A stretch of 64,000 nucleotides of DNA from positions 1,860,001-1,924,000 of the forward strand of contig NZ_CP046977.1 in assembly GCF_030408455.1 (NCBI RefSeq), in the 5' to 3' direction. This stretch comes from Corynebacterium atrinae (GTDB lineage: Bacteria > Actinomycetota > Actinomycetes > Mycobacteriales > Mycobacteriaceae). The translations under genes and the position numbers were made by a program. This document shows, piece after piece, positions 3,657 to 62,438 of the stretch. The notes under the pieces were generated by a model. It was not told where the DNA came from and made no database searches. It was given only the letters and a program-made list of their open reading frames with translations. The number at the start of each line of letters is the position of its first letter. Position 1 is the stretch's first letter.

Positions 3657-4895
3657 ATGCCGATCTGGCCCTCCGCCCCCAGCCCCATCCTCGACCGTGC
3701 CCGTCAATTGCATCGAGAGGAAACTGGGGTGGAAAGTACCCAGGTAGCGGATTGTCCAGGCACGTGGCTCGTGATGGGCGAGCATGTCGATTACGCCGGT
3801 GGAATAACGCTGGTCGCCCAGGTTTCACAGCGAGTTGCGGTCGCTTTCTCCCCCCGCCGAGATGATCTGATTAAGGTCACCACGCAGTCCACGACGCTCG
3901 AGGGAACAGGTACTACCACGGAGGAAATCAGCCTCGGCGCAATCGAAGAACGGGCGACGAATCAACGACTGGTTGACCACCAATGCGGCTTAGTCGCCGA
4001 GCGACTCGGCGGCATTGTGTGGACCATGATCCACCGCCAGCTACTCTCCCGCGACACGTCAGGCATGGACGTCACCGTGGTCAATGACATTCCTGCTGAT
4101 GCAGGGCTGGGGGCAATTGCCTCGACGGAGGCTGCCTTTGCCCTGGCCCTGCTCGGGTCTGCAGAAGATTGCGATGAGGCACCCCTGCGTGCTCGTCTAG
4201 CGGAGGTGTGCGCGCAAGCTGCCGAAGCTTTCTCCCCCGCCCCCGCGCTGCGCTCCCGCTATACGGCCGCGTTGCGCGGCACTGCCGGCCAGGTCGCGGT
4301 GATCAATTACGCAGATGGGTCCGTTACTCAGGCTCCCCACCCGGCATCCGCAGGGATGCGGGTATTCGCGGTCATTGGTCCGGAAGCTGATGTTGATCAG
4401 ACGTCGGCTATTCAAGGACGTCGTCGGTTCCTGGATGCGGCCTGCCGTGCCTTTGGCACGGAGTCGCTTCGCTTGCTTCCCGACGCCCCGACGCGCGTCC
4501 TCGACTGGCTCCGTGCGGTCCACAAGGTTCACGGCGCCGAGGGACAGCCCACCCTCGATCAGGCGGCGAGTTGGCTGACCTTCGACCAGGAGGAGACCGG
4601 ACGAGCCGAACAGCTCAGCCGATCCTTGCGCTCTCGCCGCGTCGAAGATTTGTGGTCTCTCATGGCCGAGTCTCAGGCGGGCCTAGAAAGCTACGGGCTC
4701 AATGCCCAACCCGACCTGGTGAAACTCATTCTTGTGCGCGGTGCTGCAGGGGCACGTGCGGCGGTGGCGGGAATGTCTGCGGCGGTGATCGCGGGCGTCG
4801 ATAAGCGCCACGCCGGCAACTTCTCGGCGGATCTGTCCGCCGATGGTTTCACTCTTGTGGACCTCGGCATCGGTTCCCCTGCCCAAGTTGGTTAG
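3657..4895 (+). CDS. Galactokinase-like GHMP-family protein, probably degenerate
   Basis: 412 residues with galactokinase architecture: GEHVDYAGG (41–49) is the sugar-binding signature (GEHTDYNGG in true galactokinases), and a GHMP motif region at ~143–156 reads NDIPADAGLGAIAS. The canonical P-x-x-x-G-L-S-S-S-A phosphate loop is not intact because the SSS run has become GAI. A C-terminal glycine/alanine-rich GHMP segment (RGAAGARAAVAGMSAAV) remains. No galT or galE lies nearby. The ATG at 3657 follows AAGGAG; an ATG six codons earlier precedes that site and is less likely. It ends tail-to-tail with the RNB gene, sharing TTAG. Activity on galactose is uncertain. Confidence 0.75.
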   Translation: MPIWPSAPSPILDRARQLHREETGVESTQVADCPGTWLVMGEHVDYAGGITLVAQVSQRVAVAFSPRRDDLIKVTTQSTTLEGTGTTTEEISLGAIEERATNQRLVDHQCGLVAERLGGIVWTMIHRQLLSRDTSGMDVTVVNDIPADAGLGAIASTEAAFALALLGSAEDCDEAPLRARLAEVCAQAAEAFSPAPALRSRYTAALRGTAGQVAVINYADGSVTQAPHPASAGMRVFAVIGPEADVDQTSAIQGRRRFLDAACRAFGTESLRLLPDAPTRVLDWLRAVHKVHGAEGQPTLDQAASWLTFDQEETGRAEQLSRSLRSRRVEDLWSLMAESQAGLESYGLNAQPDLVKLILVRGAAGARAAVAGMSAAVIAGVDKRHAGNFSADLSADGFTLVDLGIGSPAQVG

Positions 4896-6289
4896 TCAGC
4901 CGGCCAGGCGAAAACCACGTCTCGGGCTGTGATATCCGCCCTCACCAGCGACACCTTTGTGGCTGTGCTCTGAGGCGGGGCTCCGAGGCAATTGGCTAGG
5001 ACAGGCGGGTCCGTGACGAAAATCCGGGATTGCTCACGCTCAGCATCGGACGTGAGAACGAGGGCGTCAAAATTGTGGCCAACCCACGGGCTGAGGACTG
5101 TCGCCTCTGTGAGATCAAGAGCGGCGCGGTCAACGTTGTTGGCCAAGGTAGACGTGCGATTCATGGCTTCGATGACATCTTCGGCGCGGATACTGGCCCA
5201 CTCGGGCACGGCACTCCCCTGACACAGCGCCAGGCAGTACTCGGTGGCAAAGCGATCAATGAGCCGACGAAGCGGCGCCGTGACGTGCGAATAGTAGCCG
5301 CCGATACCGGCGTGGACCTCCGCATCGCCGCTTTCTACCAGCGCATAGCCGGAACCGCGAAGCAGCTTCTGAGCCTCACGCATCACGGCCATGCCGCGAG
5401 CATCGGTTGCATCAACGGTTTGAAGAAACTCGCCAAGCGGCTGTTCATCGGGACATTCGTAGCCCAAGGCACGAGACTCCGCCCGGAAGACGGCAAGCGA
5501 ATCCGAGTTTGCTGGGCGCAAGGTCCGCAGGAGTCCCGTGCCATGGGTGACCATGAGCCGTCCCGCACACATTCCCGTGAGCAGCGAGATCTCGGAATTC
5601 CAGTCCATGACCTCGTGACGTGGCTCAACGACGAGCTCATACGTGCCGTCCGCAAGATGGGACACGCTCTGGGCGGGCAGGCGCAAATTGATGGCGTCGC
5701 GCCGCAACGCGGATGCCTCCCGCAACCGACCGACCTCGGGAAGCAACTCGATAGACGGGTGCAAGCGTGAGTTGCGGAAATCCTCGTGGACGCCGTCATA
5801 ATCCAGGCGAGCCACACTCCTCACCAACGCGCGTTCGAGGTGGAAATCAATGACCTCTGCGGCCGAATCTAGCTCAAACGTCCACAGCACGGCCGGCCGA
5901 TCGACACCAGGCAGCAGCGACGCCTCCCCTTCCGACAATGCCGGCGGATGGAGGCGAACGGGCTCATCGGGTAGGTAAATCGTCTGTCCGCGACGAAAAG
6001 ACTCGGCCTCCAGCACCGAGCCCGGCTCCACGAAAGCGGCCACATCGGCGATCGCGTAGCGAACTCGAAAGCCGGTATCGGTGGCCTCGATGAACACCGC
6101 CTGATCCAAATCCATGGAGCCGACCGGGTCAATGGTGACCAGCGGAATATCTCGGGCATCCCGTCGCTGGCTGGCATAGCGATCCCGAACAGTGGCGGCC
6201 TCAGCGAGCACCTCCGGCGGAAATTCCGTCGGCAGGGAAAATTCTTCCGCGATGCCGCGGAAGTCGAGCTGCGCTGCGTAGAGCTTCAT
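4892..6289 (-). CDS. RNB-domain ribonuclease (RNase II/R family)
   Basis: 465 residues dominated by an RNB catalytic domain. The signature VTIDPVGSMDLDQAVF supplies D54, D60 and D62; the fourth position of the RNase II acid cluster is glutamine (Q63), a variant I associate with short actinobacterial members. GYYSHVTAPLRRLIDRFATEY is the conserved RNB helix. The N-terminal cold-shock domains and the C-terminal S1 domain of full-length RNase R are absent, so it is a short-form 3′–5′ exoribonuclease. The frame stays open upstream to 6397, but that part overlaps RNase P RNA, so I start at the ATG at 6289 (MKLYAAQLDF). Confidence 0.85.
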   Translation of the reverse strand: MKLYAAQLDFRGIAEEFSLPTEFPPEVLAEAATVRDRYASQRRDARDIPLVTIDPVGSMDLDQAVFIEATDTGFRVRYAIADVAAFVEPGSVLEAESFRRGQTIYLPDEPVRLHPPALSEGEASLLPGVDRPAVLWTFELDSAAEVIDFHLERALVRSVARLDYDGVHEDFRNSRLHPSIELLPEVGRLREASALRRDAINLRLPAQSVSHLADGTYELVVEPRHEVMDWNSEISLLTGMCAGRLMVTHGTGLLRTLRPANSDSLAVFRAESRALGYECPDEQPLGEFLQTVDATDARGMAVMREAQKLLRGSGYALVESGDAEVHAGIGGYYSHVTAPLRRLIDRFATEYCLALCQGSAVPEWASIRAEDVIEAMNRTSTLANNVDRAALDLTEATVLSPWVGHNFDALVLTSDAEREQSRIFVTDPPVLANCLGAPPQSTATKVSLVRADITARDVVFAWPAD

Positions 6290-6340
6290 GGGGACCCATT
6301 GTTCCACGATCGGACAGTTGGCGGTGCAGGAGGAGAGTGG

Positions 6341-6753
<413 letters not shown>

Positions 6754-6795
6754 GGAGTGAGTCTACCTCGCGGACTCAGCCGGACAGGAATCTCG

Positions 6796-7944: not shown

Positions 7945-7947
7945 GAG

Positions 7948-8681: not shown

Positions 8682-9815
8682 TTACTCGCTTGCGTGGGTG
8701 GACAGGGTCCAGGGGTCCGTGCGGATATCTAAAATATGCGTATCGACGCCCGCCTGTTCCCCCACGATCGCCGCCGCCTGCGACGTCCAGGGGAATTCGC
8801 TGGACCAGTGGGCGGTATCGATGACGGGCGGGCCGCCGGCCCTAAGGTACTCGTCGACGGGGTGGTGCCGGAGGTCAGAAGTAACGTACACGTCTACCCC
8901 TAGCCCGCGCACCGCGTCGAGGAAGCTGTCCCCCGAACCGGAGCTGACGGCGACCTTTTTCACCAGCGCCTCGGGATTACCCGCCGCGCGCACGCCCCAG
9001 GCGGTGGGTGGCAGGGCGTTGGCCACCTGTTGAGTAAATTCCCGCAAGGTCATTGCCTCGGGCAACTCACCGATGCGGCCGAGCCCATAGGCCTCATCGA
9101 GGTCTGAGGTGTCGGCCATTTCCACGATGTCGAAGGCGGGCTCCTCGTAGGGGTGGGCTGCGCGGAGCGCATCGATGAGACCTCGACGTCGATAAGCAGG
9201 GGCGACGAACTCCACCCGCAGTTCCGGCCCGCAGTGGGCGACCCCCATCTTTCCCTCGGCCGGTGAGGCGCCCTCTTGGGGCGTGAACTGGCCGACGCCT
9301 TCAATGGTGAAGGCACACTCGGAGTAGTCCCCGATGGTGCCCGCCCCGGCGGCGAACAATGCTTCCTTTACCGTCGACGCAGCCACGGAGGGCACGTGCA
9401 CTCCCCACTTATCTACGGCGCTGCCACTCTGCGGGAGGATAGGCCGACCGGGAGTAATGCCGACGAGCTCGGCGAGCACATCATTGACCCCGGGGCGCGC
9501 GGAATCGGCATTGGTGTGCGCGGCAAACAACGCCACTCCACCGGTGATGAGCGTGTGAATGACTTTGCCTTTGGGTGTATCGGCCGCCACGGAGGTCACG
9601 CCCCGCATGAGCAATGGATGATGCACCACGAGCATGTCTGCGCCCAGCCGCACAGCCTCTTCCGCCACGGATTGGGTGCAATCCAACGCGAAAGCGACCT
9701 TTGTCACACCAGCGTCCGGGTCGCCGCAGATAAGGCCGACCGCGTCCCAGCTCTCAGCAAGTTTTGGCGGGTAGGCGGACTCCAGGATCTGGCGGATATC
9801 AGCGACGGTCGTCAT
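8682..9815 (-). CDS. Nif3-like dinuclear metal centre protein
   Basis: 377 residues of the NIF3/YbgI (DUF34) family. LVVHHPLLMRG carries the paired histidines for the dinuclear metal site near the N-terminus, and SGSGDSFLDAV plus DLRHHPVDEYLRAG near the C-terminus complete the metal-binding half. Length above 300 residues indicates the form with the inserted PII-like domain. The family forms hexameric rings; the substrate is not settled. It is first in the Nif3–zinc ribbon–RNase H series and is divergent from the HAD phosphatase gene. Confidence 0.92.
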   Translation of the reverse strand: MTTVADIRQILESAYPPKLAESWDAVGLICGDPDAGVTKVAFALDCTQSVAEEAVRLGADMLVVHHPLLMRGVTSVAADTPKGKVIHTLITGGVALFAAHTNADSARPGVNDVLAELVGITPGRPILPQSGSAVDKWGVHVPSVAASTVKEALFAAGAGTIGDYSECAFTIEGVGQFTPQEGASPAEGKMGVAHCGPELRVEFVAPAYRRRGLIDALRAAHPYEEPAFDIVEMADTSDLDEAYGLGRIGELPEAMTLREFTQQVANALPPTAWGVRAAGNPEALVKKVAVSSGSGDSFLDAVRGLGVDVYVTSDLRHHPVDEYLRAGGPPVIDTAHWSSEFPWTSQAAAIVGEQAGVDTHILDIRTDPWTLSTHASE

Positions 9816-10539: not shown

Positions 10540-11023
10540 CCGCCTTCACCTCGACTTCGTCTGCACCGGCAACATCTGCCGCTCCCCCATGGCCGAGGTC
10601 ATCATCCACGACGCCATCGACGCCGCCGGGCTTGGCGACGCCGTCCGCGTAAGCTCCTGTGGAATCGGCGGCTGGCACGTCGGACTCGGCGCCGACAAGC
10701 GCGCCGTCGCCGAACTCCGTTCCGCTGGACACGATGGCTCCGAACACGTCGCTTCGCAATTCGGCCCGGATGACTTCGACGCCGACCTACTCGTCGCCCT
10801 CGACACCGGCCACCGCTCCGAACTCATCGCCCGCGGAGTACCCGAAGAGCGCATCCGCCTCCTCCGGAGCTTCGACCCCACCGCCCCCGCGGAGGCGTCT
10901 GTGGCCGACCCTTATTACGGCGGGCCGGAGGGCTTTGTGGAAACCCGCGAGCAGATCGAAGCGTCCGTCAATGGCATCCTCGCGTGGGTCCGGGAGCGGG
11001 TTCAGGTCAACGCCGCCCGATAG
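10502..11023 (+). CDS. Low-molecular-weight protein-tyrosine phosphatase
   Basis: 173 residues. FVCTGNICRSPMAEV is the C-x5-R-[ST] P-loop of LMW-PTPs and DPYYGGPEGF near residue 140 carries the general-acid aspartate (DP[YF]). The enzyme dephosphorylates phosphotyrosine, acting in the cytoplasm or, in mycobacterial PtpA, after secretion. The ATG at 10502 lies inside the end of the HAD gene in another frame, giving a 38-base overlap and likely translational coupling. The family start a few residues before the P-loop supports this position. Confidence 0.9.
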   Translation: MTGSTSGTAREDSRLHLDFVCTGNICRSPMAEVIIHDAIDAAGLGDAVRVSSCGIGGWHVGLGADKRAVAELRSAGHDGSEHVASQFGPDDFDADLLVALDTGHRSELIARGVPEERIRLLRSFDPTAPAEASVADPYYGGPEGFVETREQIEASVNGILAWVRERVQVNAAR

Positions 11024-11038: not shown

Positions 11039-11959
11039 GTGAGCGGCACCATGGAGCGATACAACTCAACCCGGGCGACCAAGAAGGGCTGGAAGTCCTT
11101 CTTCAAGCCTGGGTGGATTCTCGCGCTGCTCGCCATCCTTGGCTTCTCCTACGCGGCGTTCACCGTGCTCGCCCCGTGGCAGCTGAACAAGGACGACCAG
11201 ATCGTCGAGCGCAACGAGCAGATTGACGCCGCCTTCCGCACCGATCCCGTCCCGGTGCAAGACATCTTCGGCACCGATGGGGCGATCAGCCCGGGTGACG
11301 AATGGCGGAGAGTCACCCTCACCGGCCACTACCTTCCCGCATCCGAGGTAGTCCTGCGCCTGCGCCCCGTCGACAGCCAGCCGGCCTTCCATGCTCTCAC
11401 CCCATTCCAACTCGATTCCGGTGAGACGATACTGGTCAACCGCGGTTTCTCCGCCCCACTCGAAGGCTCGATTCCGGATCTCGCACCCGCTCCCTCCGAG
11501 CACCTCACGATCCACGGCCACGCCCGCCTCAACGAGGCGCTACCCACCACCCCACCCTTGCTGGATCAAGGGGAGCCGCAGGTCTATGGCATCAACACCT
11601 CCCAGGTCGCCGAGCTAACCGGGTTGACCCTTGACCAGGATTACGTCCAACTCTCCGAAGGAGAACCCGGGGAAATCAACGCCATCCCCGTGCCCAAGCT
11701 CGATCGCGGCTCTCACCTCTCTTACGGCTTCCAGTGGATCGCCTTCGGCATCATGGCCCCCCTCGGCCTGGGCTACTTCATCTGGGCTGAGCTGCGCGAA
11801 CGCCGCCGCGTCCGCGATGAGAATGAAGAGCTTATCGACGTCGTCGAAGACATCGACACCGCACCCTCCACCACAACTTCCCGACGCCGCGCCCGCTACG
11901 GCGACGAAAGCCCCGACCACTACGACAAGTTCTCCCGCCGCAGCCGCGAGCGTTTCTAG
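11039..11959 (+). CDS. SURF1 family cytochrome oxidase assembly protein
   Basis: 306 residues with the SURF1 topology: a transmembrane segment near residues 25–45 (GWILALLAILGFSYAAF, then TVLAPWQLNKD), an extracytoplasmic domain with GDEWRRVTLTGHY and ETILVNRGF, and a second membrane helix (QWIAFGIMAPLGLGYFIWAEL). A charged cytoplasmic tail of about 65 residues follows. SURF1 proteins help insert haem into the aa3 oxidase. A GTG at 11039 or ATG at 11051 could start it; TAGACT about 12 bases upstream looks like a −10 element, which favours a near-leaderless message. Confidence 0.88.
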   Translation: MSGTMERYNSTRATKKGWKSFFKPGWILALLAILGFSYAAFTVLAPWQLNKDDQIVERNEQIDAAFRTDPVPVQDIFGTDGAISPGDEWRRVTLTGHYLPASEVVLRLRPVDSQPAFHALTPFQLDSGETILVNRGFSAPLEGSIPDLAPAPSEHLTIHGHARLNEALPTTPPLLDQGEPQVYGINTSQVAELTGLTLDQDYVQLSEGEPGEINAIPVPKLDRGSHLSYGFQWIAFGIMAPLGLGYFIWAELRERRRVRDENEELIDVVEDIDTAPSTTTSRRRARYGDESPDHYDKFSRRSRERF

Positions 11960-15443: not shown

Positions 15444-15804
15444 TGATTTATTCCTCCTCGTTCCGGGCCGATGACTGTTTCATTGGCCCATCGATTTAGT
15501 TCCAACTGGCAATATACAAGGATTGGCCAGGAAATTCCTGTTTCTGGGCCCCGTGGCGCGTAGCGCTGACGGGGTGGGGTGGGGGACGCGGGGCGTCGAT
15601 ACGCTGTTTTATTCTTCGCATTCGCCGCAGAATGCGCCGCACGCTCGCACCCTCCCACCCCAGCGCGGTTTGCAACCTTCACAACCACCCGCCGGAACGT
15701 TGGCGAAGGAAAACACGTATCCTTGGTGGAGACATCTGGCTGCAATCGGACAAAACCGGGCGCAGCCAGTTCTTCCTAAAACGCCACAAACCAGGAGGCT
15801 AGCA
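15444..15804. promoter_or_regulatory. aceE upstream region with a candidate RamB-type site
   Basis: This 361-base stretch holds no convincing gene; an in-frame extension of aceE to 15523 is low-complexity and lies ahead of a strong aceE ribosome binding site. GGTTTGCAACC (15667–15677) resembles the TTTGCAAA core bound by RamB, a known regulator of aceE in C. glutamicum. TATACA (15513–15518) could be a −10 element but has no clear −35. A copy of the iterated word (GCGTATCGACG, minus strand) lies at 15594–15604. Assignment of RamB is inference. Confidence 0.35.
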
Positions 15805-18593: not shown

Positions 18594-18635
18594 CTTTGCT
18601 TATCGACGCCCCCTTGTCACCGTTAGACTGTTGCC

Positions 18636-19244: not shown

Positions 19245-20043
19245 GTTCCTGCCAGATTGCCTCGTTCGTCTCTGACCACAGTGGCTTAGCCCAGTCGCCA
19301 AAGGGTCGGTCGGTGAGGGCCACCATCGCGCGGCCCGTTCCGGGGGCAACCCACAGGTAGGTGCCGGACTGGCCGAAGTGCCCGAAAGTATCGGCGGGCA
19401 TCGACGCTCCCGTCCAGTGCGGGTCCTTGTCGCCCTTGATCTCAAATCCGAGGCCGAAGGGGCAGGGCTTCATCATGCCGTAGCCAGGGATGATGCCGTT
19501 GAGCTCCGGGAACTGGACAGTGATGGCCTCGGCCATCGTGGAGGGGTGCAGCAGCGTCGGGTGCATGAGCTCAAGCAGGAAGGTGATGAGGTCGTGGACC
19601 GTGCCTTCGGCCTGCCAGCCCGCGGAGCCCCGCAGCCTCGTCCACTGCATTCCCAGCGGTTCCATGACGCCTTCGCGGAGGTAGTCGGCGAAGGACATGC
19701 CGGCGGCGGAGGCGACGGCGTCGGCAAGCAGCTCGAAACCGTAATTGGAATACACCCGGCGCTGACCCACCGGGCGGACGCGATCGTCGGCGCGAAAGCC
19801 GACGCCGGAGGCGTGGGAGAGCAGGTGACGCACGGTGGATCCCTCCGGGCCAAGCGGAGTGTCGAGCTCGAAGATGCCCTCCTCGATGGCCATGAGGAAG
19901 CCATAGGCGCTTAAGGGTTTGGTGACGCTGGCCAGCTCAAAGACCTTGCCCAAGTCCCCCACCCGGTCGATGTCATCGCCGTTGATGACGGCGGCCGCGA
20001 CGTTGTCGACGGGCCAGTCCTTCAGCAGTTCCAGAGCGCTCAT
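19231..20043 (-). CDS. Serine hydrolase, class C β-lactamase fold
   Basis: 270 residues with the penicillin-binding/β-lactamase motifs S39-V-T-K42, Y98-S-N100 and HFGQSG near residue 220 (in place of KTG). No signal peptide is visible, so it is more likely a cytoplasmic esterase of the EstB type than a secreted β-lactamase. It follows the α/β hydrolase gene with a 4-base ATGA overlap, so the two hydrolases are co-expressed. The substrate is unknown. Confidence 0.85.
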   Translation of the reverse strand: MSALELLKDWPVDNVAAAVINGDDIDRVGDLGKVFELASVTKPLSAYGFLMAIEEGIFELDTPLGPEGSTVRHLLSHASGVGFRADDRVRPVGQRRVYSNYGFELLADAVASAAGMSFADYLREGVMEPLGMQWTRLRGSAGWQAEGTVHDLITFLLELMHPTLLHPSTMAEAITVQFPELNGIIPGYGMMKPCPFGLGFEIKGDKDPHWTGASMPADTFGHFGQSGTYLWVAPGTGRAMVALTDRPFGDWAKPLWSETNEAIWQELNHP

Positions 20044-45050: not shown

Positions 45051-45674
45051 TTAGGCGTCCTTGGGTTCGGCCGGCTTAGCCGGCTCGCCGATGGCCGGGA
45101 TCCCCGGGAGCTTCCCATCCAGCGCTTCACGATCCGCCGCCGAGGGAAACGCCTGCGGGCCGGTCGGCTTCGGCTGGTAGGTCACGCCGCGCTTTTTCAC
45201 GTCGTCATACCAGTCGGCCAGCAACTCATTCTGCAGGGCGAACATCTCGCGCTCCTCCGGCGCCGTGGCGTGATCGTAGCCCAGCAGGTGCAGGCAGCCG
45301 TGGACGGTGAGCAACGCCAGCTCGTGGTCGAGCCCGTGACCGGCGGCCAGCGCCTGCTTCGCCGCGAACTCGGGGCACAGCACGATGTCGCCGAGCATCG
45401 CCGGACCGGGTTCGGGAGCGTCGGGGCGTCCGCCAGTGACGCTGCCGCTGCCGGGGGTGAGCTCATCCATCGGGAACGTCATCACGTCCGTGGGGCCGTC
45501 GAGATCGAGCCAGCGGACGTGGAGATCCTCAATGGTCGCTAGGTCGACGATGTGGAGGGATGCTTCGGCATCCGGATGGATGTCCATCTCGCCGAGGGCG
45601 AAGGAGGCGACGTCGATAAGCATCTCCTCATTGACGCCCTCATAACCGGACTCATTGAAGACTTCGATGCTCAT
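45051..45674 (-). CDS. ybeY: Endoribonuclease YbeY with long C-terminal tail
   Basis: 207 residues. [11 protein letters not shown] is the H-x3-H-x5-H zinc motif and the N-terminal part ([21 protein letters not shown]) is the standard fold. YbeY matures the 16S 3′ end and checks ribosomes. The tail after about residue 155 ([18 protein letters not shown], then AEPAKP-rich) is longer than in most members. Its start overlaps the PhoH stop by one base (TAATG). Confidence 0.93.
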
Positions 45675-46649: not shown

Positions 46650-47360
46650 CTACCAGCGCGAAGTCAGCACTCCGATGGCAGATAGGGCCACCATCGCCGC
46701 GCTCGCCGTCCGCAATACTTCCGGCCCCAGCTTCACGCTGCGCACACCGGCCTCGTTCAACTGCGCCAACTCTTCCTCGCCGATCCCGCCCTCGGGTCCG
46801 ACGATGAGGAAGATCTCCTCGGCACTGAGATCGACATCGCGCAACGGTGTCGCCGCCTCTTCGTGGAGGACATAGGCGGTCTTCCCGCGCACGAGCTCGG
46901 CCAGCTGCTTGGTGTTCACCGCCGGGTGGATTTCCGGGATCCGCGTGCGCCTCGACTGCTTTGCTGCCGCCAGCGCCGCCGCCTCCCATTTTTGCTGCTT
47001 CTTCTCTGCCCACTTGGCCACGCAGCGCTGTGCCTGCCACGGCACGAACGCATCGGCGCCCGCCTGCGTCGCCAAATCGATCGCCAACTCCGAGCGCTCC
47101 GCCTTGGGCAAGGCCTGCACGATCGTCACCGAAGGTGACGGTTGCTTGTCCGCGCCCACTTCGTCCACCACCCCCACCAACTCCGACTTGCCCGTGGTGG
47201 CGGTGACGGTGACGACGGCGCGGGTACCGCGGCCGTCGATAAGCATGATGCGCTCACCGGGTGCAATCCGCTTGACCGCAACCGCATGCCGGCCCTCCGG
47301 GCCGTCGAGGGTGACCGTGCCCGCGAAGGGGCCGGGGTGGACGAAGACCGGTAGGCTCAT
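46650..47360 (-). CDS. rsmE: 16S rRNA (uracil-1498-N3)-methyltransferase
   Basis: 236 residues of the SPOUT methyltransferase family. The PUA-like N-terminal domain ([27 protein letters not shown]) and the knotted C-terminal domain with [16 protein letters not shown] and [15 protein letters not shown] are clear. It methylates U1498 in the decoding centre. Its start overlaps the dnaJ stop by four bases (ATGA). Confidence 0.93.
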
Positions 47361-48531: not shown

Positions 48532-49542
48532 CTATTCGCCTGCGAGGACACGGCTAACATACCGTGCAACGGCTGAGACCTTCGAAATTGTTCCCGAGTA
48601 GTCCATGAATGTGGGCCCGACCACTCCCAATCCGCCCAGCGTGTGGCCTTCCGAGCCATACCCCGTCGCCACAATCGACGCCTCGTGCAGGTCCTCGTCC
48701 TCATTCTCTTCCCCGATGAGGACATGCACACTGCCCAGGTCCGGCACGCTCGCCAGCAACTTCAGCACCGTGACCTGCTCCTCCAGCGCCTCAATAACAC
48801 TGGGCAGGCCCGGCCGCGTCAGGTTTGACGTCCCCGCCAGAATCAGCCGGTCACGCGGCTGCTCCACCAGCGTCTCAATCAACCGCGTCGCCGACTTCAC
48901 CAACGGATGCCGGATATCCTCCGGGGCATCCGCCGCCAACTGCACCAAGCTTGACGACGCCTCCGTCAACGTCTTTGCCTCCAAAGCACCGTTGAGCGCG
49001 TCCCGCAGACGCCTCACGGCATCCGCGTCCACCGCCTCATCGAGCTCCACGTTGCGTTGCTCGACCCGACCCGTGTCCGTGATCAACACCAGCAACAACC
49101 TGACGGGGCTCAGCGCCACCACCTCGCAGTGCTTCACTCGTGACACCTGCAGGTTCGGCAGCTGCACCACCGCAGCCTGCCGCGTCAGCTGGGCCAGCAA
49201 CTGCACCGACCTGCGCAGCACATCCTCCAGGTCGACCCCACCTTCCAAGAAGCTGAGAATCGCCCTGCGTTCCGGTACCGAGAGCGGCTTCACCCCGTGA
49301 ATGAGATCAACAAACTGCCGATACCCCTTCTCCGTAGGAATCCGCCCCGAGCTCGCATGCTGCTGCGCGATGAGCCCCTCCGCCTCGAGCACCGCCATAT
49401 CGTTGCGAATCGTCGCGCTCGACACATTCAACTTATGCCGCTCAAGCAGGGACTTTGACCCCACCGGCTCCTGGGAGGCGATGTAATCAGCCACGATCGC
49501 CTGCAGAACCTCTTGCCGGCGCCTATCTGTTGAACCAGCCAT
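48532..49542 (-). CDS. hrcA: Heat-inducible transcription repressor HrcA
   Basis: 336 residues. An N-terminal winged helix ([41 protein letters not shown]) is followed by the GAF-like and inserted dimerisation parts. HrcA represses chaperone genes through CIRCE operators with GroE as partner. GGGAGG lies before the ATG at 49542; an 11-codon extension precedes that site. It is upstream of dnaJ with a 50-base gap and downstream of a palindromic repeat. Confidence 0.94.
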
Positions 49543-49710: not shown

Positions 49711-50826
49711 TTAGCGCTCCTCGGCGACGAGGATGTCGGTGATGATGCCATCGGCGAGGAGGCGGCCGGCGTCGGTAAGCGCCACCCGATCGCCGACGAG
49801 CCGCAGCAGGCCGCGCTTGACGAAGCCGGAGACGACGGCCTGGCCGGCGGGGGCAATCGAGGCGAGGGGGACGCCTGCGCGGAGGCGAAGGCCGAGCATG
49901 AGGGCTTCGGTGTGCCGGTCGGCGTCGGAAAGCGTTTCGGAGCCGGCGATGGGCAGAGTGCCCTCGGCGAGCATCGCGGCGTAGCGGGCGGGGTGTTTGA
50001 CGTTGAAGAAGCGGCGGTTGCCCAGGTGGGAGTGGGCTCCGGGGCCGGCACCCCACCAGTCGCCGTCTTGCCAGTAGATCTCGTTGTGTCGGCACTCGCC
50101 GCCGGGGAGGGCCCAGTTGGAGACCTCGTACCAGGCGAGGCCGGCGCTTTCGAGGCGGGCGGCGATCATCTCGTAGCGGTCGGCAAAGACGTCGTCGGAG
50201 GGGGCGGGGAGTTCGCCGCGGCGGACTTTGCGGGCCATGGCGGTGCCGTCTTCGACGATGAGGGAGTAGGCGGAGACGTGGTCGACGCCGGTGGAGAGGA
50301 TGGCGTCGAGGGTGCGGGCGACGTCGTCGTCGGTTTCGGTAGGGGTGCCGTAAATCATGTCGAGGTTGACGTGGGCGAAACCTGCGGCGAGGGCTTCCTG
50401 GGCGGCGGCGACGGCACGGCCGGGGGTGTGGGTGCGGTCGAGGACGCGGAGGACGGAGGCGGAGGCGGACTGCATGCCGAGGGAGATGCGGGTGAAACCG
50501 GCATCGAGAAGCCCGGCGAAGAAGGCGGGCGAGGTGGATTCGGGGTTGGATTCGGTGGTGATTTCGGCGTCAGGCGCCAGCGTGAAGTTGTCGCGCACCG
50601 TGTCGAGGACTCGCCCCAGGCCGTCAGCGCCGAGAAGGGAGGGGGTGCCGCCGCCAATGAAGATGGTGTCGACGGGGCGATCGACGACGGTCATCGCTAG
50701 TTCACGGCTGAGGGAGTCGAGGTAGGAGCCGGGCGACATGTCGAGTTCGCCGGGCGTGTAGGTGTTGAAGTCGCAGTAACCGCAGCGGGTGGCGCAGAAG
50801 GGTACGTGGATGTAGAGGCCGAACAT
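49711..50826 (-). CDS. hemW: Radical SAM haem chaperone HemW
   Basis: 371 residues. FGLYIHVPFCATRCGYCDF gives C11, C15 and C18, the CxxxCxxC cluster; the fourth cysteine of true coproporphyrinogen dehydrogenase (HemN, CxxxCxxCxC) is absent, so this is HemW, a haem-binding chaperone. FIGGGTPSLL and SLGMQSASASVLRVLDR are the SAM-binding segments. The frame extends upstream to 51081 inside the preceding gene; the ATG at 50826 overlaps that gene's stop (TAATG). Confidence 0.92.
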   Translation of the reverse strand: MFGLYIHVPFCATRCGYCDFNTYTPGELDMSPGSYLDSLSRELAMTVVDRPVDTIFIGGGTPSLLGADGLGRVLDTVRDNFTLAPDAEITTESNPESTSPAFFAGLLDAGFTRISLGMQSASASVLRVLDRTHTPGRAVAAAQEALAAGFAHVNLDMIYGTPTETDDDVARTLDAILSTGVDHVSAYSLIVEDGTAMARKVRRGELPAPSDDVFADRYEMIAARLESAGLAWYEVSNWALPGGECRHNEIYWQDGDWWGAGPGAHSHLGNRRFFNVKHPARYAAMLAEGTLPIAGSETLSDADRHTEALMLGLRLRAGVPLASIAPAGQAVVSGFVKRGLLRLVGDRVALTDAGRLLADGIITDILVAEER

Positions 50827-51503
50827 TAGGAGGCGGCGTTCCGCGAGGCGCGCTTGGCGGCGACGCGGGCGACGACGGCGTCGATACGCGCACGTTCGAC
50901 GAGGAAGGCCGGAGGGTTCGCGCCGCGCATGGTGCGGGTATACGCGGGGTGTTCCTCGGCGACGCAGCTCAGCCAGGCGTCGACGACGCCGCGCACGAGA
51001 GTGCCTACTCGCCCGTAGAAGTGCGGGAGGCTGACGGCGTTGAGGTCGGTGGCGACGAGGTCGGTCTGGGTGAGGACCCATTCGACTGCATCGTCGAGTC
51101 GCTTGGCGACGTCCGCGGTCCGCCCGTCCAGGGCCTCCGACAGCACTGCGACGGTCACCGGTGTACCGGTGACGGGGTGTGCGGTGGTGAGGGAGAGGGC
51201 GTCGATAAGCTGAGGCTCCGGGAGGCGCACTGCGGTGGCAGCGGAGGCGGAGAGAGTGCCGGCGCGGACGCCGGAGATGAGCGCTTGGCGCAGGCCGAGG
51301 AGTTCGCCGACGATGGTGCGGGAGTCTCGGCGGGCGTCGTCAAGTATTTCGGAGAACTCGGCGAGGCAGTCTTCGACGAGTTCGGCGTCCCAGTCACGGA
51401 TGGCTTCGGCGAGGTGCTCGATGTACTCGGCTACCTCATCGCCAATGTTGTAGATTTCCTGGGTCAGTTCGCGGTGGCGCAGCTCAGCAGCGATCTTGTG
51501 CAT
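50826..51503 (-). CDS. Conserved hypothetical protein
   Basis: 225 residues, largely helical, no signal peptide or membrane segment. No domain is recognised. Segments such as RTIVGELLGLRQALISGVRAGTL and DDAVEWVLTQTDLVATDLN suggest two helical halves. It precedes hemW with a one-base overlap and is the first gene of the leftward series. A copy of the iterated word (51200–51210) lies in it, encoding QLIDAL. Confidence 0.65.
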   Translation of the reverse strand: MHKIAAELRHRELTQEIYNIGDEVAEYIEHLAEAIRDWDAELVEDCLAEFSEILDDARRDSRTIVGELLGLRQALISGVRAGTLSASAATAVRLPEPQLIDALSLTTAHPVTGTPVTVAVLSEALDGRTADVAKRLDDAVEWVLTQTDLVATDLNAVSLPHFYGRVGTLVRGVVDAWLSCVAEEHPAYTRTMRGANPPAFLVERARIDAVVARVAAKRASRNAAS

Positions 51504-52126: not shown

Positions 52127-52587
52127 ATGCCATCACCCAGCGCACCGCCCTGGCAATCTTCGTGCTCACCGCCATCTCGCTGGGCACCTGGGTCAATGGC
52201 CTCTTCCCCAGCGAGGTCTTAACCAAGCCCTACGAGTACACCGGTGCGCACGCCCCGACGCTGGGCACGGTCAACATCACGGGCACCCGCACCGCCGACA
52301 ATGTCGATGGGGTGGGCACCCAGGGCACGTACCTATTCGTTGACGCGCAGGTCAGCGACATCCCGGAGGTCGAATCGCTTGACGCGACGCTTATCGACGC
52401 CGCCGGACGCAGCAATGCGTCCATGGGCACCGGCTGCGGGGTCCATCAGCCGGGGCTGCCCGCCCCGTGCACCTTCACCTTCGAGGTCGACCCGGCCCAG
52501 CTCGCCGGCTCCCACCTGCGGGTCCGAAACGCCATGACGGAGATGTCCGGAGCCGTGCTCATCCTGCCACTGGAGGACCTAAAGTGA
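52123..52587 (+). CDS. Membrane-anchored protein, second of the set
   Basis: 154 residues: an N-terminal helix (TALAIFVLTAISLGTWVNGLF) and an extracytoplasmic domain with two cysteines (TGCGVHQPGLPAPCTF) likely joined by a disulphide. GTG start at 52123 overlaps the previous stop, with GGAGG 7 bases upstream. The family is not recognised. Confidence 0.72.
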   Translation: MNAITQRTALAIFVLTAISLGTWVNGLFPSEVLTKPYEYTGAHAPTLGTVNITGTRTADNVDGVGTQGTYLFVDAQVSDIPEVESLDATLIDAAGRSNASMGTGCGVHQPGLPAPCTFTFEVDPAQLAGSHLRVRNAMTEMSGAVLILPLEDLK

Positions 52588-53240: not shown

Positions 53241-54539
53241 TTCCTCGGTAAGGGCTAGGTCATCGAGCTCCACCGGGCCCTGGACCGGGGCCTGCGTCGG
53301 TCCCTCTTCCGGTGCGGTAGCTGCCAGCAAACGGTCGATAGCTGGCGCAATGAGCACGATGGCGACCATGAAGTAGACCATTCGGCCCACAATTTCGATG
53401 TAGGGATGGATGGCAGCGGCCTCCGTCATCGGGCGGGGACCAAGCAGCATCCGCCCACCGTAGAGCACGCCCACCTCCGCGGCCTTGGCCATGATGAATA
53501 GCACGCAGAAAGTCACCATCGGTGCCAGACCCGCGGCCGCCACCTTGGTCAGGCCTGACCAAGTGACTTTGAGGGGCCCGATGATGGGTTTGGCGGCGGT
53601 GTCGATGGTCGAACGGGCTTGCATGACCGCGAGCTCGCTGAATTGGCGTGGGCCGTCTTTGGCGTGGGCCCCGCCTTTCTTCTTCTTGGTGGCGCTGGGA
53701 ACGACCAAGGACGTGCCGTAGATCGTCGCCCCGAGCGTGAGCCAGGCGACGGGGATGATGATGACGTCGTCGGCGCGCGCGAGCAACGTAACGATCCAGC
53801 TAAGGATCGCACCGACTGGCCCAGCAAGCTCGAGGCTCCATTCCCGGAGGTTGGTGGCGGTATCGACAACGGGGGCGATGACAGCTCGGCTAGCCAACCA
53901 CTCGCGTCCGTTGGCCACCCAGGTGGTGAGCACCGTGGAAAAGGTGACCATCCACAGCACTTCCAGGTAGGCAGAGAGGCCGGCCCATCCGACTGACTTT
54001 TCTCCTAATGCGAAGACACCGATGAGCTTTCGCACGACGAGGGACACCAACACCAACGAGATGAGAAGCCAGCCGAATTCGAAGTTCACCCGCCCAAAAT
54101 CGGCCGTGAGAAAACGCGACGAGGCTTCCGCCAGCGTGGCGTTGTAGATGTACTCGCGGGTGTCCTCCTTGAGAAGGCCATTGGAGGCATAGACGGTGAG
54201 GAAGGGGATGAGGAGGCCGCCGATGGTGAGCATGCGGCCCTGGACCCCGCCCGCCGGGCTGGCCAGCGCCTTAGAGACATAAGGCAGCGAAGGCTTGACC
54301 AGCCACAGAGCCGAGATGAGAGAAGTCATCACGACGATGGGGGCCAGGGGCACGATTAGCGCGGCGGCGAGCGGCGAATAGTCCGACACAATGACAGCCA
54401 GCCAAATCACTAGCTGACGTAAACCCAAACCCAACGCCATCACCGTGAGCAGTGCCGGCCAGTGGCGGGCGAGGATGAGGAGGGCGTCGATAGGCACGGC
54501 GACGGCTCGTCGCAGTGCTGAACCTACATAGCTGCCCAC
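53226..54539 (-). CDS. Polytopic integral membrane protein beside fadD15
   Basis: 437 residues with about eight to ten hydrophobic helices (for example PIVVMTSLISALWLV, FGWLLISLVLVSLVV, YFMVAIVLIAPAIDRLL) and an acidic C-terminal tail. No transporter family is recognised. GTG at 54539 lies 7 bases after the fadD15 stop, with AAGAGG ahead, so it is probably co-transcribed with the ligase. It faces the three membrane-anchored genes tail to tail. A role in envelope assembly is inference. Confidence 0.75.
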   Translation of the reverse strand: MGSYVGSALRRAVAVPIDALLILARHWPALLTVMALGLGLRQLVIWLAVIVSDYSPLAAALIVPLAPIVVMTSLISALWLVKPSLPYVSKALASPAGGVQGRMLTIGGLLIPFLTVYASNGLLKEDTREYIYNATLAEASSRFLTADFGRVNFEFGWLLISLVLVSLVVRKLIGVFALGEKSVGWAGLSAYLEVLWMVTFSTVLTTWVANGREWLASRAVIAPVVDTATNLREWSLELAGPVGAILSWIVTLLARADDVIIIPVAWLTLGATIYGTSLVVPSATKKKKGGAHAKDGPRQFSELAVMQARSTIDTAAKPIIGPLKVTWSGLTKVAAAGLAPMVTFCVLFIMAKAAEVGVLYGGRMLLGPRPMTEAAAIHPYIEIVGRMVYFMVAIVLIAPAIDRLLAATAPEEGPTQAPVQGPVELDDLALTEESAEG

Positions 54540-59117: not shown

Positions 59118-59126
59118 GGGACCAAT

Positions 59127-61133
59127 CTAGCGCACGTCGGATCCGGCCAGCCCGCGGCGGCGCAGGAGGGGGGCGACGTCTTTGTCGCGGCCGCGGAGGC
59201 TGCGGAAGGCATCGGTGTAGTCGAGGGTGGCTCCGCGGGAGAGGATGCGCTCGCGGAATGCCTGCCCTGCGGCGCGGACGTCGGGCTGGGCACTGAACCA
59301 GTCGAAGCCGTCGGCGTCGAGCGCCTCCGCCCACAGGTAGGAGTAGTAGCCGGCGGAGTAGCCGCCGCCGAAGATGTGGTTGAAGTAGGTCGATCGATAA
59401 CGGGGTGCCAGCTCGTCGACGATGAGGCCAGCTTCTTCCAGTGCGGCCTGCTCGAAGTCGCTTATCGACGTCCCCGTCTCCCCCACCTTCGCCGCCTCTG
59501 GCGGCGTCAGCGAATGCCATGCCAGGTCGATGATGGCGGCGGCGAGGTACTCGGACGTCGCAAAGCCTTGACCGAACTGGCGGGCGGCGATGATAGCGTC
59601 GACCAGCTCGTCGGGGATGATCTCGCCCGTGTCGACATGGTGAGCGTAGTGGCGCAGGACCTCGGGGTCGAAGCCCCAGTTCTCGTTGATCTGCGAGGGG
59701 AACTCGACCCAGTCGCGGGGGACGTTGGTGCCGGACAGCGTGGGGTAGCGGACCTTCGAGAGGAGGCCATGGAGCGCGTGCCCAAACTCGTGGAAGAGGG
59801 TGGTCACCTGGTCGATGGTGAGCAACGGCTCGGAGCCGTCGGTCGGGTGGGTAATGCTCATGACGTTGACCACGACGGGCTTGGTGCCCAGCAGGTCTGA
59901 CTGGTCGACGAAGGAGCTCATCCAGGCGCCGCCGCGCTTGGACGGCCGAGAGCGGTAGTCGGTGAGCAACAGGCCGATACCTTCGTCGCCGTCCTTGACC
60001 TCCCACACGTCAACGCCGTCGGCGTAACCCTGCAAGTCGTCGCGCTTATGCACCGTGATTCCGTAGAGTCGCTCAGCGGCGAAAAACACGCCCTTCTCCA
60101 GGACCCGGCGCAGCGGGAAGTAGCGCGAGACTTCTTCGTCATCGAGGGAGAAGTCTCGCTCGCGGACCTTGGCCTGCCAGAAGGGCCAATCGGCGCCCGT
60201 GACGGGCTCACCGGCCAGTTCAGAGGCGAGCTTGCGTTCAGCATCAGCGTTAGCTGCGGCGGCCGGGGCTAGATCGAAGAGCAGGTCGCGGGCGGCCTGG
60301 GCGGTGCGGGCGGTCTCCTCGGCGATGACGTAATCAGCGTGAGTGTCATACCCCAACAGCTGCGCCCGCTCGGCCCGCAATTGGACCTGCTCAAGGAGGT
60401 TGGCGGCGTTGGCGGTTTCCCCCCGCTGCTGCGACGCCTCGTAGAGTGCAGCGCGCGAGGCGGGATCGGTGAGCAATGCCTGGTCAGCCTGCACCGACGG
60501 CAGATCGAGGGGCAGCAGGTATCCCTCACCGCCCGCATCGGCGTGGGCGGAATCGATTCGAGATTCGCTCAGACCCGCCAACTGCTCGGCGTCGGAAAAC
60601 CGCACGGCGAGGCGCTTCGTATCGGCCAGGAGGGAGCGCCCAAACTCCTCCGAGAGCACGCTCAGGCGCTGGTTGATGTCAGCCAATCGCTGCTTACCCG
60701 CCTCGTCGAGAGCCGCACCGCGGCGCGTAAAGCGACGCAACAGCAATTCGTGCAGACGCTGAGATTCGGCATCGTCGGGGACGGTGACGTCGTAAAGCAG
60801 CTGGTAGAGGGCCGGATTCTGGTAAATCGCATCGGAATGGGCCGAGAGCTTAGGAACGATATCCGCGGCCACGGCATCCATCTCGTCCGTGGAATCGGTG
60901 CCCTGCAGGTTAAAAAACCACGCGGCCGTGCGCTCGAGAGTACGACCGGACTTCTCCAGCGCCTCGACCGTGCTTGCCCAGGAACCATCCGCTGCCAGGA
61001 TCTCGGCGACTTCCTCGCGTTGTTCCGCGAGTCCAATCTCGAAGGCCTCGGCGGCATGATCCAACGTGATCTCGGCGAAAGGCGGTAGCTGGTAGGGAAG
61101 GGAAGATGGTTGCAACAGGGGATTCACAGTCAT
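59127..61133 (-). CDS. dcp: M3-family peptidase (peptidyl-dipeptidase Dcp/oligopeptidase A type)
   Basis: 668 residues. TLFHEFGHALHGLLS is the HExxH zinc motif with the helical extension; the glutamate ligand is in the following helix (FPSQINENWGF). The N-terminal helical part (SLPYQLPPFAEITLDHAAEAFE) is the family pattern. It degrades oligopeptides in the cytoplasm; there is no signal peptide. The frame is open up to 61709 antisense to the esterase, but the ATG at 61133 gives the family start. Confidence 0.93.
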   Translation of the reverse strand: MTVNPLLQPSSLPYQLPPFAEITLDHAAEAFEIGLAEQREEVAEILAADGSWASTVEALEKSGRTLERTAAWFFNLQGTDSTDEMDAVAADIVPKLSAHSDAIYQNPALYQLLYDVTVPDDAESQRLHELLLRRFTRRGAALDEAGKQRLADINQRLSVLSEEFGRSLLADTKRLAVRFSDAEQLAGLSESRIDSAHADAGGEGYLLPLDLPSVQADQALLTDPASRAALYEASQQRGETANAANLLEQVQLRAERAQLLGYDTHADYVIAEETARTAQAARDLLFDLAPAAAANADAERKLASELAGEPVTGADWPFWQAKVRERDFSLDDEEVSRYFPLRRVLEKGVFFAAERLYGITVHKRDDLQGYADGVDVWEVKDGDEGIGLLLTDYRSRPSKRGGAWMSSFVDQSDLLGTKPVVVNVMSITHPTDGSEPLLTIDQVTTLFHEFGHALHGLLSKVRYPTLSGTNVPRDWVEFPSQINENWGFDPEVLRHYAHHVDTGEIIPDELVDAIIAARQFGQGFATSEYLAAAIIDLAWHSLTPPEAAKVGETGTSISDFEQAALEEAGLIVDELAPRYRSTYFNHIFGGGYSAGYYSYLWAEALDADGFDWFSAQPDVRAAGQAFRERILSRGATLDYTDAFRSLRGRDKDVAPLLRRRGLAGSDVR

Positions 61134-61175
61134 GGGGCCCGATGGTAGCGGCGCGCGGTTGGTAGCGTTAGCACC

Positions 61176-62438
61176 ATGTCCACCACCGTGCGCGTCAGCT
61201 GCCCCGCCGGCACCGTCGTCGGGCTCAGCGACGGCGACGTCACCCGATTCCACTCCATCCCCTACTCCGACATCCCCGGAGACTTCGCCAACGCCACGCG
61301 CCTTGCGCCCCAAGAGCTTATCGACGCCACCACCTACCGCCCCGAGACCATCGCCCTCACCGTCTTCACGCCGACAGGAGCACGCCCCCTCGCCGACCTC
61401 CCGGTCGTCGTCTACATCCACGGTGGACGCTTCGAGTACGGCACCCACGGCGATCGGCGAGCAGACGGCACCCCGAACGCCCTGGCCGACGTCGTGACCG
61501 TGCACATTGGCTACCGAGTGAAACTCGCAGGTTTCGCGCGTTTTCACGACGACGAGCCCAACCGCTACCGCGGCATAGACGACTGCCAACTCGGCCTCGA
61601 ATGGGTCCAACGCAACATCGAGTCCTTCGGCGGCGACCCCACCAATGTCACGCTCGTGGGTCAATCTGCCGGGGCCACCACGGCGCTGTGGCTGGCCCGG
61701 CGCGACCACTACCGCGGGGGCTTCCGCCGAATCTTGGCCATGTCTCCGTGCTTCCCGCGCGCCTCCTTCGGGGAGCGAAAAGCGTCGCTGCGAATGGCCA
61801 TAGGCAAACCCGTCACCCGCGACGCCCTAGCGCGCGTATCCCCGAAAACGCTGGATCGCGGCTATAACCGCTTCCGCACGATTCACGGCATGGACATGGC
61901 CCTCGGCCCCTCACCGTTAGAGCCCCAAGAGCAAGCCGATATCCCCCTGTGGATCACCTCGACCCGCGAAGAGTTCTATCACATGCCCGCCGGGCAGAAG
62001 GCAGATTCCCTGCGATGGCGAGAGGGCATCGCCCGCCGGATGAGCCGCCGCATGGGCATGTCCGGTTCCTTTAATACCTGGCTGGAGCACGCGCGCATGA
62101 TGGATCCCCAACGGATCGTCGGACGCCTCATCGGCGACGCCTCCAACCGCCGCTGGGTTTCCCAAGCCGCCGAAGAGGCACCAGGAAAAGTATGGATGAC
62201 CGAGTTCGTCCGCACCCGCGGCCCCGCCATTCACTGTTCTGAGATTCCGGCCGCTTTCGGGCTGGAACACGGCCCCCTGCACGATCTGCTCCTCGCGTTT
62301 GCGCGCGGCGAGGATCTCCCCTGGCCAGCCTTCTCCCCCGATGACAGCAGGCAGGCGCTTCGCTTCAACCTCGACAACGGTGACGCCGAGGTGATCAGTG
62401 ATCCCCTGCTGATGGTGCGAGAGGCGTTTAGCGGCTAG
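61176..62438 (+). CDS. Carboxylesterase, type B
   Basis: 420 residues. GQSAGATTALWLARRD is the nucleophile elbow of type B esterases, VVVYIHGGRFEYGTHGD the oxyanion loop and DCQLGLEWVQRNIESFGGDPTNVTLVG the conserved segment before the serine. No signal peptide is present. The catalytic acid and histidine lie in the less conserved C-terminal half and were not pinned down. It is divergent from dcp and ends 7 bases from idi. Confidence 0.9.
   Translation: MSTTVRVSCPAGTVVGLSDGDVTRFHSIPYSDIPGDFANATRLAPQELIDATTYRPETIALTVFTPTGARPLADLPVVVYIHGGRFEYGTHGDRRADGTPNALADVVTVHIGYRVKLAGFARFHDDEPNRYRGIDDCQLGLEWVQRNIESFGGDPTNVTLVGQSAGATTALWLARRDHYRGGFRRILAMSPCFPRASFGERKASLRMAIGKPVTRDALARVSPKTLDRGYNRFRTIHGMDMALGPSPLEPQEQADIPLWITSTREEFYHMPAGQKADSLRWREGIARRMSRRMGMSGSFNTWLEHARMMDPQRIVGRLIGDASNRRWVSQAAEEAPGKVWMTEFVRTRGPAIHCSEIPAAFGLEHGPLHDLLLAFARGEDLPWPAFSPDDSRQALRFNLDNGDAEVISDPLLMVREAFSG

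What the first reader, a model, noticed from the sequence alone, without database searches (positions are those of the whole stretch)
4796..61326. A highly iterated 11-base word, GCTTATCGACG, of unknown role
I count 13 exact copies of GCTTATCGACG and 20 of GCNTATCGACG in 64 kb, ten on each strand. Under equal base frequencies a given 11-mer is expected about 0.03 times on both strands of 64 kb. Protein constraint does not explain it: sense copies encode ELID/LLID (4 of them use the CTT leucine codon, uncommon in this GC-rich sequence), others encode AYRRR, antisense copies read as VDK or SIS, and two lie between genes. The context extends to GCTTATCGACGYCSCC. It is not a palindrome and not the DnaA box. 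The balanced strands argue against a polarised segregation motif. It recalls iterated words such as cyanobacterial HIP1 or DNA-uptake sequences, but the function is unknown.
Basis: partly seen in the sequence, partly recalled or inferred. Interest (0 to 1): 0.85.

Follow-up and report, generated by a model that had tools for sequence, protein, structure and literature searches.

The report
Genus-wide DNA word with species dialects
Many Corynebacterium chromosomes are sprinkled with hundreds of copies of a short DNA word that comes in different dialects in different species, which looks like a self-recognition mark of the kind some bacteria use when taking up DNA; that use has not been tested here.

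Summary
GCTTATCGACG occurs 13 times in the window and 439 times in the 2.81-Mb genome; the word read backwards, 0 times. The organism is a Corynebacterium. The motif is GCTT-NN-C-GACG-YC plus a C-rich, G-poor tail of about 40 nt, on sense and antisense copies alike. Of 242 Corynebacterium genomes, 162 hold at least 100 GCTTNNCGACGYC, 17 others at least 140 GCTTNNCGATGYC, none reaching both marks. Two genomes poor in both use a T-tract plus GACGCC. Silent sites follow the dialect: Asp codons inside the word are GAC 50:GAT 2 in one genome, 0:59 in a relative; elsewhere 251:276 and 167:383. Plasmid sequence (210 kb) holds one word, one phage none. No replichore polarity. Best reading: an uptake-sequence-like self mark kept up by natural transformation, the first candidate known to me in a Gram-positive genus. 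Uptake and receptor are not shown; competence genes do not separate word-rich from word-poor genomes.

The parts
4796..4806 (-). word GCTTATCGACG, antisense in 3639-4895
9187..9197 (-). word GCTTATCGACG, sense in 8682-9815
11830..11840 (+). word GCTTATCGACG, sense in 11039-11959
18598..18608 (+). word GCTTATCGACG, intergenic
33426..33436 (-). word GCTTATCGACG, intergenic
36925..36935 (+). word GCTTATCGACG, antisense in 36599-37978
41195..41205 (-). word GCTTATCGACG, sense in 41112-41849
45611..45621 (-). word GCTTATCGACG, sense in 45051-45674
47234..47244 (-). word GCTTATCGACG, sense in 46650-47360
51200..51210 (-). word GCTTATCGACG, sense in 50826-51503
52389..52399 (+). word GCTTATCGACG, sense in 52123-52587
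59460..59470 (+). word GCTTATCGACG, antisense in 59127-61664
61316..61326 (+). word GCTTATCGACG, antisense in 59127-61664
8738..8748 (+). variant GCGTATCGACG
15594..15604 (-). variant GCGTATCGACG, intergenic
22357..22367 (+). variant GCGTATCGACG
29200..29210 (+). variant GCGTATCGACG
31820..31830 (+). variant GCCTATCGACG
50879..50889 (-). variant GCGTATCGACG
54485..54495 (-). variant GCCTATCGACG
4475..4485 (+). family word GCTTCCCGACG(CC)
10630..10640 (+). family word GCTTGGCGACG(CC)
19719..19729 (-). family word GCTTGCCGACG(CC)
31978..31988 (-). family word GCTTCTCGACG(CC)
44238..44248 (+). family word GCTTACCGACG(CC)
48949..48959 (+). family word GCTTGACGACG(CC)
49770..49780 (-). family word GCTTACCGACG(CC)
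49923..49933 (-). family word GCTTTCCGACG(CC)
51101..51111 (+). family word GCTTGGCGACG(TC)
59556..59566 (-). family word GCTTTGCGACG(TC)
60788..60798 (-). family word GCTTTACGACG(TC)
63439..63449 (+). family word GCTTGCCGACG(CC)

Best explanation
The word is an uptake-sequence-like self mark. Shown: an asymmetric motif, GCTT-NN-C-GA(C or T)G-YC plus a C-rich tail (in two genomes a T-tract stands in place of GCTT), dispersed at hundreds of copies over many Corynebacterium chromosomes in both orientations, inside and outside genes, nearly absent from the plasmid sequence and the one phage examined, with dialects that exclude each other among species. Inferred: a surface or periplasmic DNA-binding protein of a competence apparatus (pilus, ComEA, ComEC) binds the word, so that free DNA of the own species is taken in preferentially and recombined; words arise by point mutation and spread because fragments that carry them are taken up more often. 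When the receptor's preference shifts, the words follow, mostly at silent sites, giving dialects.
For: Density and genome-wide spread. Core plus one-sided C-rich tail independent of coding sense. Dialects: 162 of 242 genomes GACG-rich, 17 GATG-rich, none over both marks (100 and 140), though G102 (250/109) and G193 (573/103) hold some of the second form; 4 changes of the GATG label on a ComEC tree of 73 genomes, at least 3 by starred branches; a T-tract form in G032 and G053, where GACGCC ranks first of the 6-mers seen after T-rich stretches. DNA-level rather than protein-level constraint: the silent Asp third base in the word is C 50:T 2 in G004 and C 0:T 59 in G006, elsewhere before GNC 251:276 and 167:383; in other reading phases 14:8 and 3:16, elsewhere 241:402 and 272:533; in the same-dialect pair G020/G021 the silent base diverges 3% and 2% against 15% and 11% in matched controls. 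Sites keep their place across the dialect switch: the 8 shared positions unchanged at 19 of 31 and 19 of 34 words against 35 of 157 and 48 of 232 controls. One word in 210 kb of plasmid or plasmid-like sequence and none in 43 kb of phage BFK20, against one per 3.1-3.6 kb in the G050 and G000 genomes (from counts). Fewer copies in DNA not shared by G020 and G021: 8 of 68 and 12 of 59 words not cleanly aligned, 26% of the sequence being unaligned. ComEC in 61 of 61 genus genomes, T2SSF (Tad-like by inference) in 59 of 61, 56 over the curated cut-off.
Against: No uptake, transformation or binding was measured, and the paper searches listed no report of natural competence or uptake words in Corynebacterium (listings, the longer ones cut). 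ComEC and T2SSF matches are also found in genomes without a recognised word, so they do not discriminate; conversely G196 (90% complete, GATG 153) gave no ComEC match, 29 of 30. Columns that separate the dialects perfectly among 27 related genomes: ComEA 2 of 203, ComEC 3 of 412, HolA 0 of 316, too few to tell. Identity around words is not raised between G020 and G021 (0.905 against 0.914). In that pair the 8-position conservation is clear in one direction only (41 of 49 against 218 of 418, p 1.5e-5; 39 of 64 against 215 of 420, p 0.18). 54 of 242 genomes have fewer than 40 GACG and 140 GATG copies; of four of these sampled at 94 kb, G014 and G029 show no T-tract form either. Antisense words, where the dialect base is not silent, are rarely switched between G004 and G006 (1 of 5 and 0 of 10 at codon position 1).
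Confidence: 0.55

Rival explanations
1. Binding site of a cytosolic chromosome-organising protein (a nucleoid-associated protein, a condensin loader or a domain boundary factor) that needs sites every few kilobases.
For: Chromosome-wide, slightly more even than random (variance/mean 0.73 in 44 bins of 10 kb), nearly absent from plasmid sequence, conserved in place.
Against: No polarity and no evident clustering toward origin or terminus in the sampled stretches; word changed or not found in many species of one genus; several hundred sites would each have to switch dialect under weak local selection (inference).
Confidence: 0.2
2. Chi-like recombination signal read by a RecBCD, AddAB or AdnAB-type helicase-nuclease, protecting own DNA and loading RecA.
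For: Dispersed at one per few kilobases, asymmetric, strand-specific one-sided tail, scarce in plasmid and phage sequence.
Against: Words run with replication in only 76 of 139 cases (my sums); 11-13 bp plus tail with variable middle exceed known Chi words (recalled); dialect switches would need changes in a central repair enzyme (inference).
Confidence: 0.12
3. HIP1-like by-product of a mutation, repair or methylation bias that favours the word.
For: HIP1 is also spread through genes and limited to some species (recalled).
Against: Plasmid and phage sequence of the genus does not share it; a bias would hardly hold a 40-nt tail and two separated half-words; the word is not palindromic; related genomes differ in one silent base inside the word far more than outside it.
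Confidence: 0.07
4. Coding artefact: the word is the commonest spelling of a frequent peptide such as LID(A/V).
For: 33 of 70 copies lie in one sense frame, and 31 of 38 and 34 of 46 aligned family words in G004 and G006 have GAC or GAT in frame.
Against: 33 of 70 copies are antisense (25) or intergenic (8); antisense copies have the same tail; codon choice in the word departs from the genome's choice elsewhere and flips between relatives.
Confidence: 0.01

Closest known systems
DNA uptake sequence (DUS) dialects of Neisseriaceae, receptor ComP (PMC3630211, passages read; PMC3868556, listing only)
   Same: Short asymmetric word in great number, an inner core kept by all dialects, dialects following the phylogeny
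   Different: Actinobacterial genus; C-rich tail of about 40 nt and a T-tract form; not enriched between genes here (8 of 70 copies intergenic, non-coding fraction 15%); uptake and receptor unknown
Uptake signal sequences (Hin- and Apl-USS) of Pasteurellaceae, predicted receptor PpdA/ComN (PMC12616744, passages read)
   Same: Core plus one-sided downstream extension, two dialects, a kept inner core
   Different: The extension there is A+T-rich (eHin-USS ends in CAATTTT), here C-rich; the cores are unlike; function untested here
HIP1 of cyanobacteria (recalled)
   Same: Highly iterated, mostly inside genes, limited to certain taxa
   Different: HIP1 is a palindromic octamer; this word is asymmetric, longer, with tail and dialects
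KOPS, AIMS and Chi (recalled)
   Same: Asymmetric, genome-wide words
   Different: No replichore polarity here, longer motif, dialect change within a genus

Membership tests
DNA uptake sequence (DUS/USS) | Hundreds to thousands of copies, far over expectation, genome-wide | tested here: met
   439 exact copies in G000; 781 of GCTTNNCGACGYC with 9 for the control; at least 100 copies in 162 of 242 genomes
DNA uptake sequence (DUS/USS) | Asymmetric word in both orientations without replication polarity | tested here: met
   34+/32- in the first and 31+/42- in the second replichore sample of G000 (my sums)
DNA uptake sequence (DUS/USS) | Dialects among relatives with a kept inner core | tested here: met
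   GACG, GATG and T-tract forms
DNA uptake sequence (DUS/USS) | Scarce in mobile and lineage-specific DNA | tested here: met
   1 word in 210 kb from five plasmids or plasmid-like contigs, all read in part, 0 in phage BFK20; fewer in unaligned DNA of one pair. Small sample
DNA uptake sequence (DUS/USS) | Organism holds a DNA-uptake apparatus | tested here: inconclusive
   ComEC in 61 of 61 and 29 of 30, T2SSF in 59 of 61, ComEA-like gene beside ComEC in G000; also present in genomes without a recognised word
DNA uptake sequence (DUS/USS) | Preferential uptake or transformation of DNA with the word | not testable with these tools
   needs experiment
DNA uptake sequence (DUS/USS) | Cognate receptor that co-varies with dialect | tested here: inconclusive
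   Perfectly separating columns: ComEA 2 of 203, ComEC 3 of 412, HolA 0 of 316; other candidates not tested
KOPS/AIMS | Strand polarity between origin and terminus | tested here: not met
   76 of 139 words run with replication (my sums; origin placed near base 1 by a noisy GC skew)
Chi | Recognition by a helicase-nuclease that then loads RecA | not testable with these tools
   needs experiment
Chi | Co-orientation with replication (recalled as usual, not universal) | tested here: not met
   76 of 139
HIP1 | Palindromic octamer (recalled) | tested here: not met
   GCTTATCGACG differs from its reverse complement CGTCGATAAGC (by inspection)

The most novel reading that the evidence does not exclude
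Corynebacterium, including the industrial species C. glutamicum, has a hidden natural-transformation system with species-specific self-recognition: a dialect-bearing DNA uptake sequence with its own receptor, evolved independently of Neisseria and Haemophilus and the first in a Gram-positive genus, that isolates species sexually and shapes several hundred sites per chromosome.
Probability: 0.5. Interest if true: 0.93.

Novelty: new variant of a known kind. Interest (0 to 1): 0.86.

Why it matters
If true, a genus of skin commensals, pathogens and industrial strains that I do not know to be counted among the naturally transformable bacteria has a self-recognising DNA uptake system. That would bear on gene flow and species barriers in the genus, give a third, independent case in which to study how uptake words and receptors co-evolve (with several dialect switches to compare), and might offer a simple route to transform C. 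glutamicum. Even if the function is another one, a motif with a tail of about 40 nt at hundreds of chromosomal sites, with dialects that show at silent positions, is an unexplained and easily testable system.

Tried and rejected
Replication-polarised motif (KOPS, AIMS): not supported, orientation is balanced. Chance or composition: rejected. Protein-coding artefact: rejected by antisense and intergenic copies and by silent-site behaviour. Terminator-linked repeat: 8 of 70 copies intergenic, no enrichment. Link 'short ComEC, word-rich': seen in 27 of 28 genomes with word/control ratio of 3.5 or more and 11 of 13 with 1.0 or less, three lying between; but these are two clades, three of the poor set turned out to use another form (G032 and G053 the T-tract, G052 GATG), and three GATG genomes show open frames of 727-728 aa around ComEC, so I do not use it. 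Pfam showed no metallo-beta-lactamase domain in the 10 ComECs tried, long or short, at E 0.001. Receptor search by columns in ComEA and ComEC: inconclusive. Higher identity near words: not seen. My first control for the dialect base (T at 86 of 327 non-word GACG sites, against 26 of 38 words) was too weak, because most words have that base at a silent Asp position; with the codon-matched control it is 76 of 157 against 23 of 31 words (Fisher p 0.010) and, in the other direction, 83 of 232 against 23 of 34 (p 0.0006). In one search a limit on offset left only 31 kb aligned; one search relaxed it (134 kb). One search left 82 of 242 genomes unscored. Searches (one paper; the 9-mer TTATCGACG in text; 69 papers, 20 listed, none opened) gave nothing that I followed. 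Genome names: G021, G050 and G034 were matched to named records by equal contig length; G113 as C. glutamicum ATCC 13032 and G012 as C. aurimucosum rest on contig lengths recalled by me. Papers: PMC3630211, PMC6667448, PMC12616744 and PMC5217627 were read in passages only; in the passages seen the last reports Corynebacterium CRISPR repeats, not this word.
Full report
Observation. GCTTATCGACG occurs 13 times and GCNTATCGACG 20 times in the window, ten on each strand. In the whole genome (G000, 2,809,195 bases, three contigs) there are 203 forward and 236 reverse copies, and none of the reversed control. The finding's own refuting test, absence outside the window, therefore fails. In 464 kb sampled there are 70 copies where Markov orders 2 to 5 predict 0.2 to 3.2; order 6 predicts 13.9, and orders 7 and 8 (43.6, 64.2) approach the count, I think because they already contain most of the word.

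Organism. A SURF1-like gene of the window finds mostly Corynebacterium in the genome collection, with more distant mycobacterial relatives at the end of the list, and 241 further genomes of the same genus are held.

The motif. Aligning the 70 copies shows YC[CG]NC after the word, little G just before it, and a C-rich, G-poor stretch downstream. Over 69 copies the tail has C 0.53, 0.45 and 0.39 at 11-26, 26-41 and 41-56, against 0.33 (sense) and 0.30 (antisense) at phase-matched random places; it is alike on 36 sense and 25 antisense copies, and the 8 intergenic copies are C-rich over the first part. The middle varies: GCTTNNNGACGYC occurs 790 times in G000 with 32 for the control; its commonest middle is ATC in G000 and G008, GCC in G004 and G006, GTC in G020/G021. 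GCGT in place of GCTT is a secondary form.

Where copies lie. Coding fraction by my caller is 0.85; of 70 copies 37 are sense (33 in one frame), 25 antisense and 8 intergenic. Taking the origin near base 1 from a noisy GC skew, words run with replication in 76 of 139 cases (my sums): no polarity. Spacing is slightly more even than random.

Mobile DNA. Phage BFK20 holds none. Between G020 and G021, 8 of 68 and 12 of 59 words are not cleanly aligned, though 26% of the sequence is unaligned.

Distribution. Of 242 genomes, 162 have at least 100 GCTTNNCGACGYC (control mean 12.6, maximum 25), 17 have at least 140 GCTTNNCGATGYC, none reaches both marks, 54 have fewer than 40 and 140, and 9 lie between; G102 (250/109) and G193 (573/103) hold some of both. 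In 140 genomes of 30 other genera of the family the GACG form is near its control, apart from about 2-4-fold excess in some genomes of two genera.

Dialect switch. G006 has 748 GCTTNNNGATGYC (control 3) and 49 of the GACG form; its relative G004 has 723 of the GACG form (control 28). Of 38 G004 words aligned to G006, 21 are GATG words there and 26 have T at the dialect base. That base is mostly the silent third base of an Asp codon. Inside the word Asp is GAC 50 and GAT 2 in G004, 0 and 59 in G006; elsewhere before GNC it is 251:276 and 167:383. At orthologous words the base is switched in 23 of 31 (control 76 of 157, p 0.010) and 23 of 34 (control 83 of 232, p 0.0006); the eight shared positions are unchanged in 19 of 31 and 19 of 34 (controls 35 of 157 and 48 of 232, p 4e-5 and 6e-5). 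In the same-dialect pair G020/G021 the silent base diverges 3% and 2%, against 15% and 11%; the eight positions are unchanged in 39 of 64 (control 215 of 420, p 0.18) and 41 of 49 (control 218 of 418, p 1.5e-5). On a ComEC tree of 73 genomes the GATG label needs 4 changes, at least 3 by starred branches. Words in antisense phase, where the base is not silent, were rarely switched.

A third form. In G032 and G053, both among the 54, GACGCC ranks first of the 6-mers that follow a T-rich dozen (22 against 0.83 and 19 against 0.92 expected), often followed by C-rich sequence, and mostly inside genes (18 of 24 listed sites in G032, 10 of 14 in G053). G014 and G029, sampled at the same depth, do not show it; the other genomes of this group were sampled at 11-14 kb or not at all.

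Machinery. ComEC (PF03772) is in 61 of 61 genus genomes and in 29 of 30 of a second set, the exception being the word-bearing, 90% complete G196; T2SSF, Tad-like by inference, in 59 of 61, 56 over the cut-off. In G000 genes that I read as comEA, comEC and holA adjoin (only ComEC was confirmed by Pfam). Presence does not separate word-rich from word-poor genomes, and ComEA and ComEC residues do not clearly follow dialect. The receptor is unknown.

Interpretation. A DNA-level, strand-specific signal with dialects and near-absence from plasmid sequence works most like the uptake sequences of Neisseriaceae and Pasteurellaceae (PMC3630211, PMC12616744, passages read). No defining feature tested was failed, but two were inconclusive and the decisive one, preferential uptake, is untested. 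Work on Micrococcus luteus shows that an actinobacterium can be transformable with tad and comEA/EC genes (PMC6667448, passages). Searches for Corynebacterium with uptake sequences, uptake signal sequences, natural transformation or natural competence listed no report of this (listings, two of them cut at 15 of 93 and 10 of 66 papers; passages of PMC5217627).

Noticed in passing
L100 (G000:C1:2490001-2510000), about 1-13250: A CRISPR-like array of 208 repeat matches, mostly with 61-base period; the repeat resembles the Corynebacterium repeat GGCTCATCCCCGCTGGCGCGGGGAGCAC quoted in PMC5217627.
   Followed up: partly
L219-L228 (G006:C1:1700001-1900000): About 100 copies of another CRISPR-like repeat (CCCCGCTCACGCGGGGAG).
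   Followed up: no
G102 (whole genome): GACG 250 and GATG 109 copies: perhaps a genome caught between dialects.
   Followed up: no
L113-L116, L181 (G014): No known form of the word, but TTTGTG-like 6-mers are enriched after T-rich stretches (11 against 0.32); perhaps a further dialect or an unrelated repeat.
   Followed up: no
L162-L170 and L145-L148 (G020): Other iterated words: TGTCACACTCA and TGACATCTGAC/TGTCACGGTCA, and copies of AACCGGACGAACCGG-like sequence.
   Followed up: no
window 13112-13912 (-): Reading frame that looks like an integrase/transposase of the IS3 type (by eye).
   Followed up: no
ComEC of 44 genomes: One deep clade of the genus has ComEC frames of 652-879 aa, the other 416-579 aa; the cause was not resolved.
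   Followed up: partly
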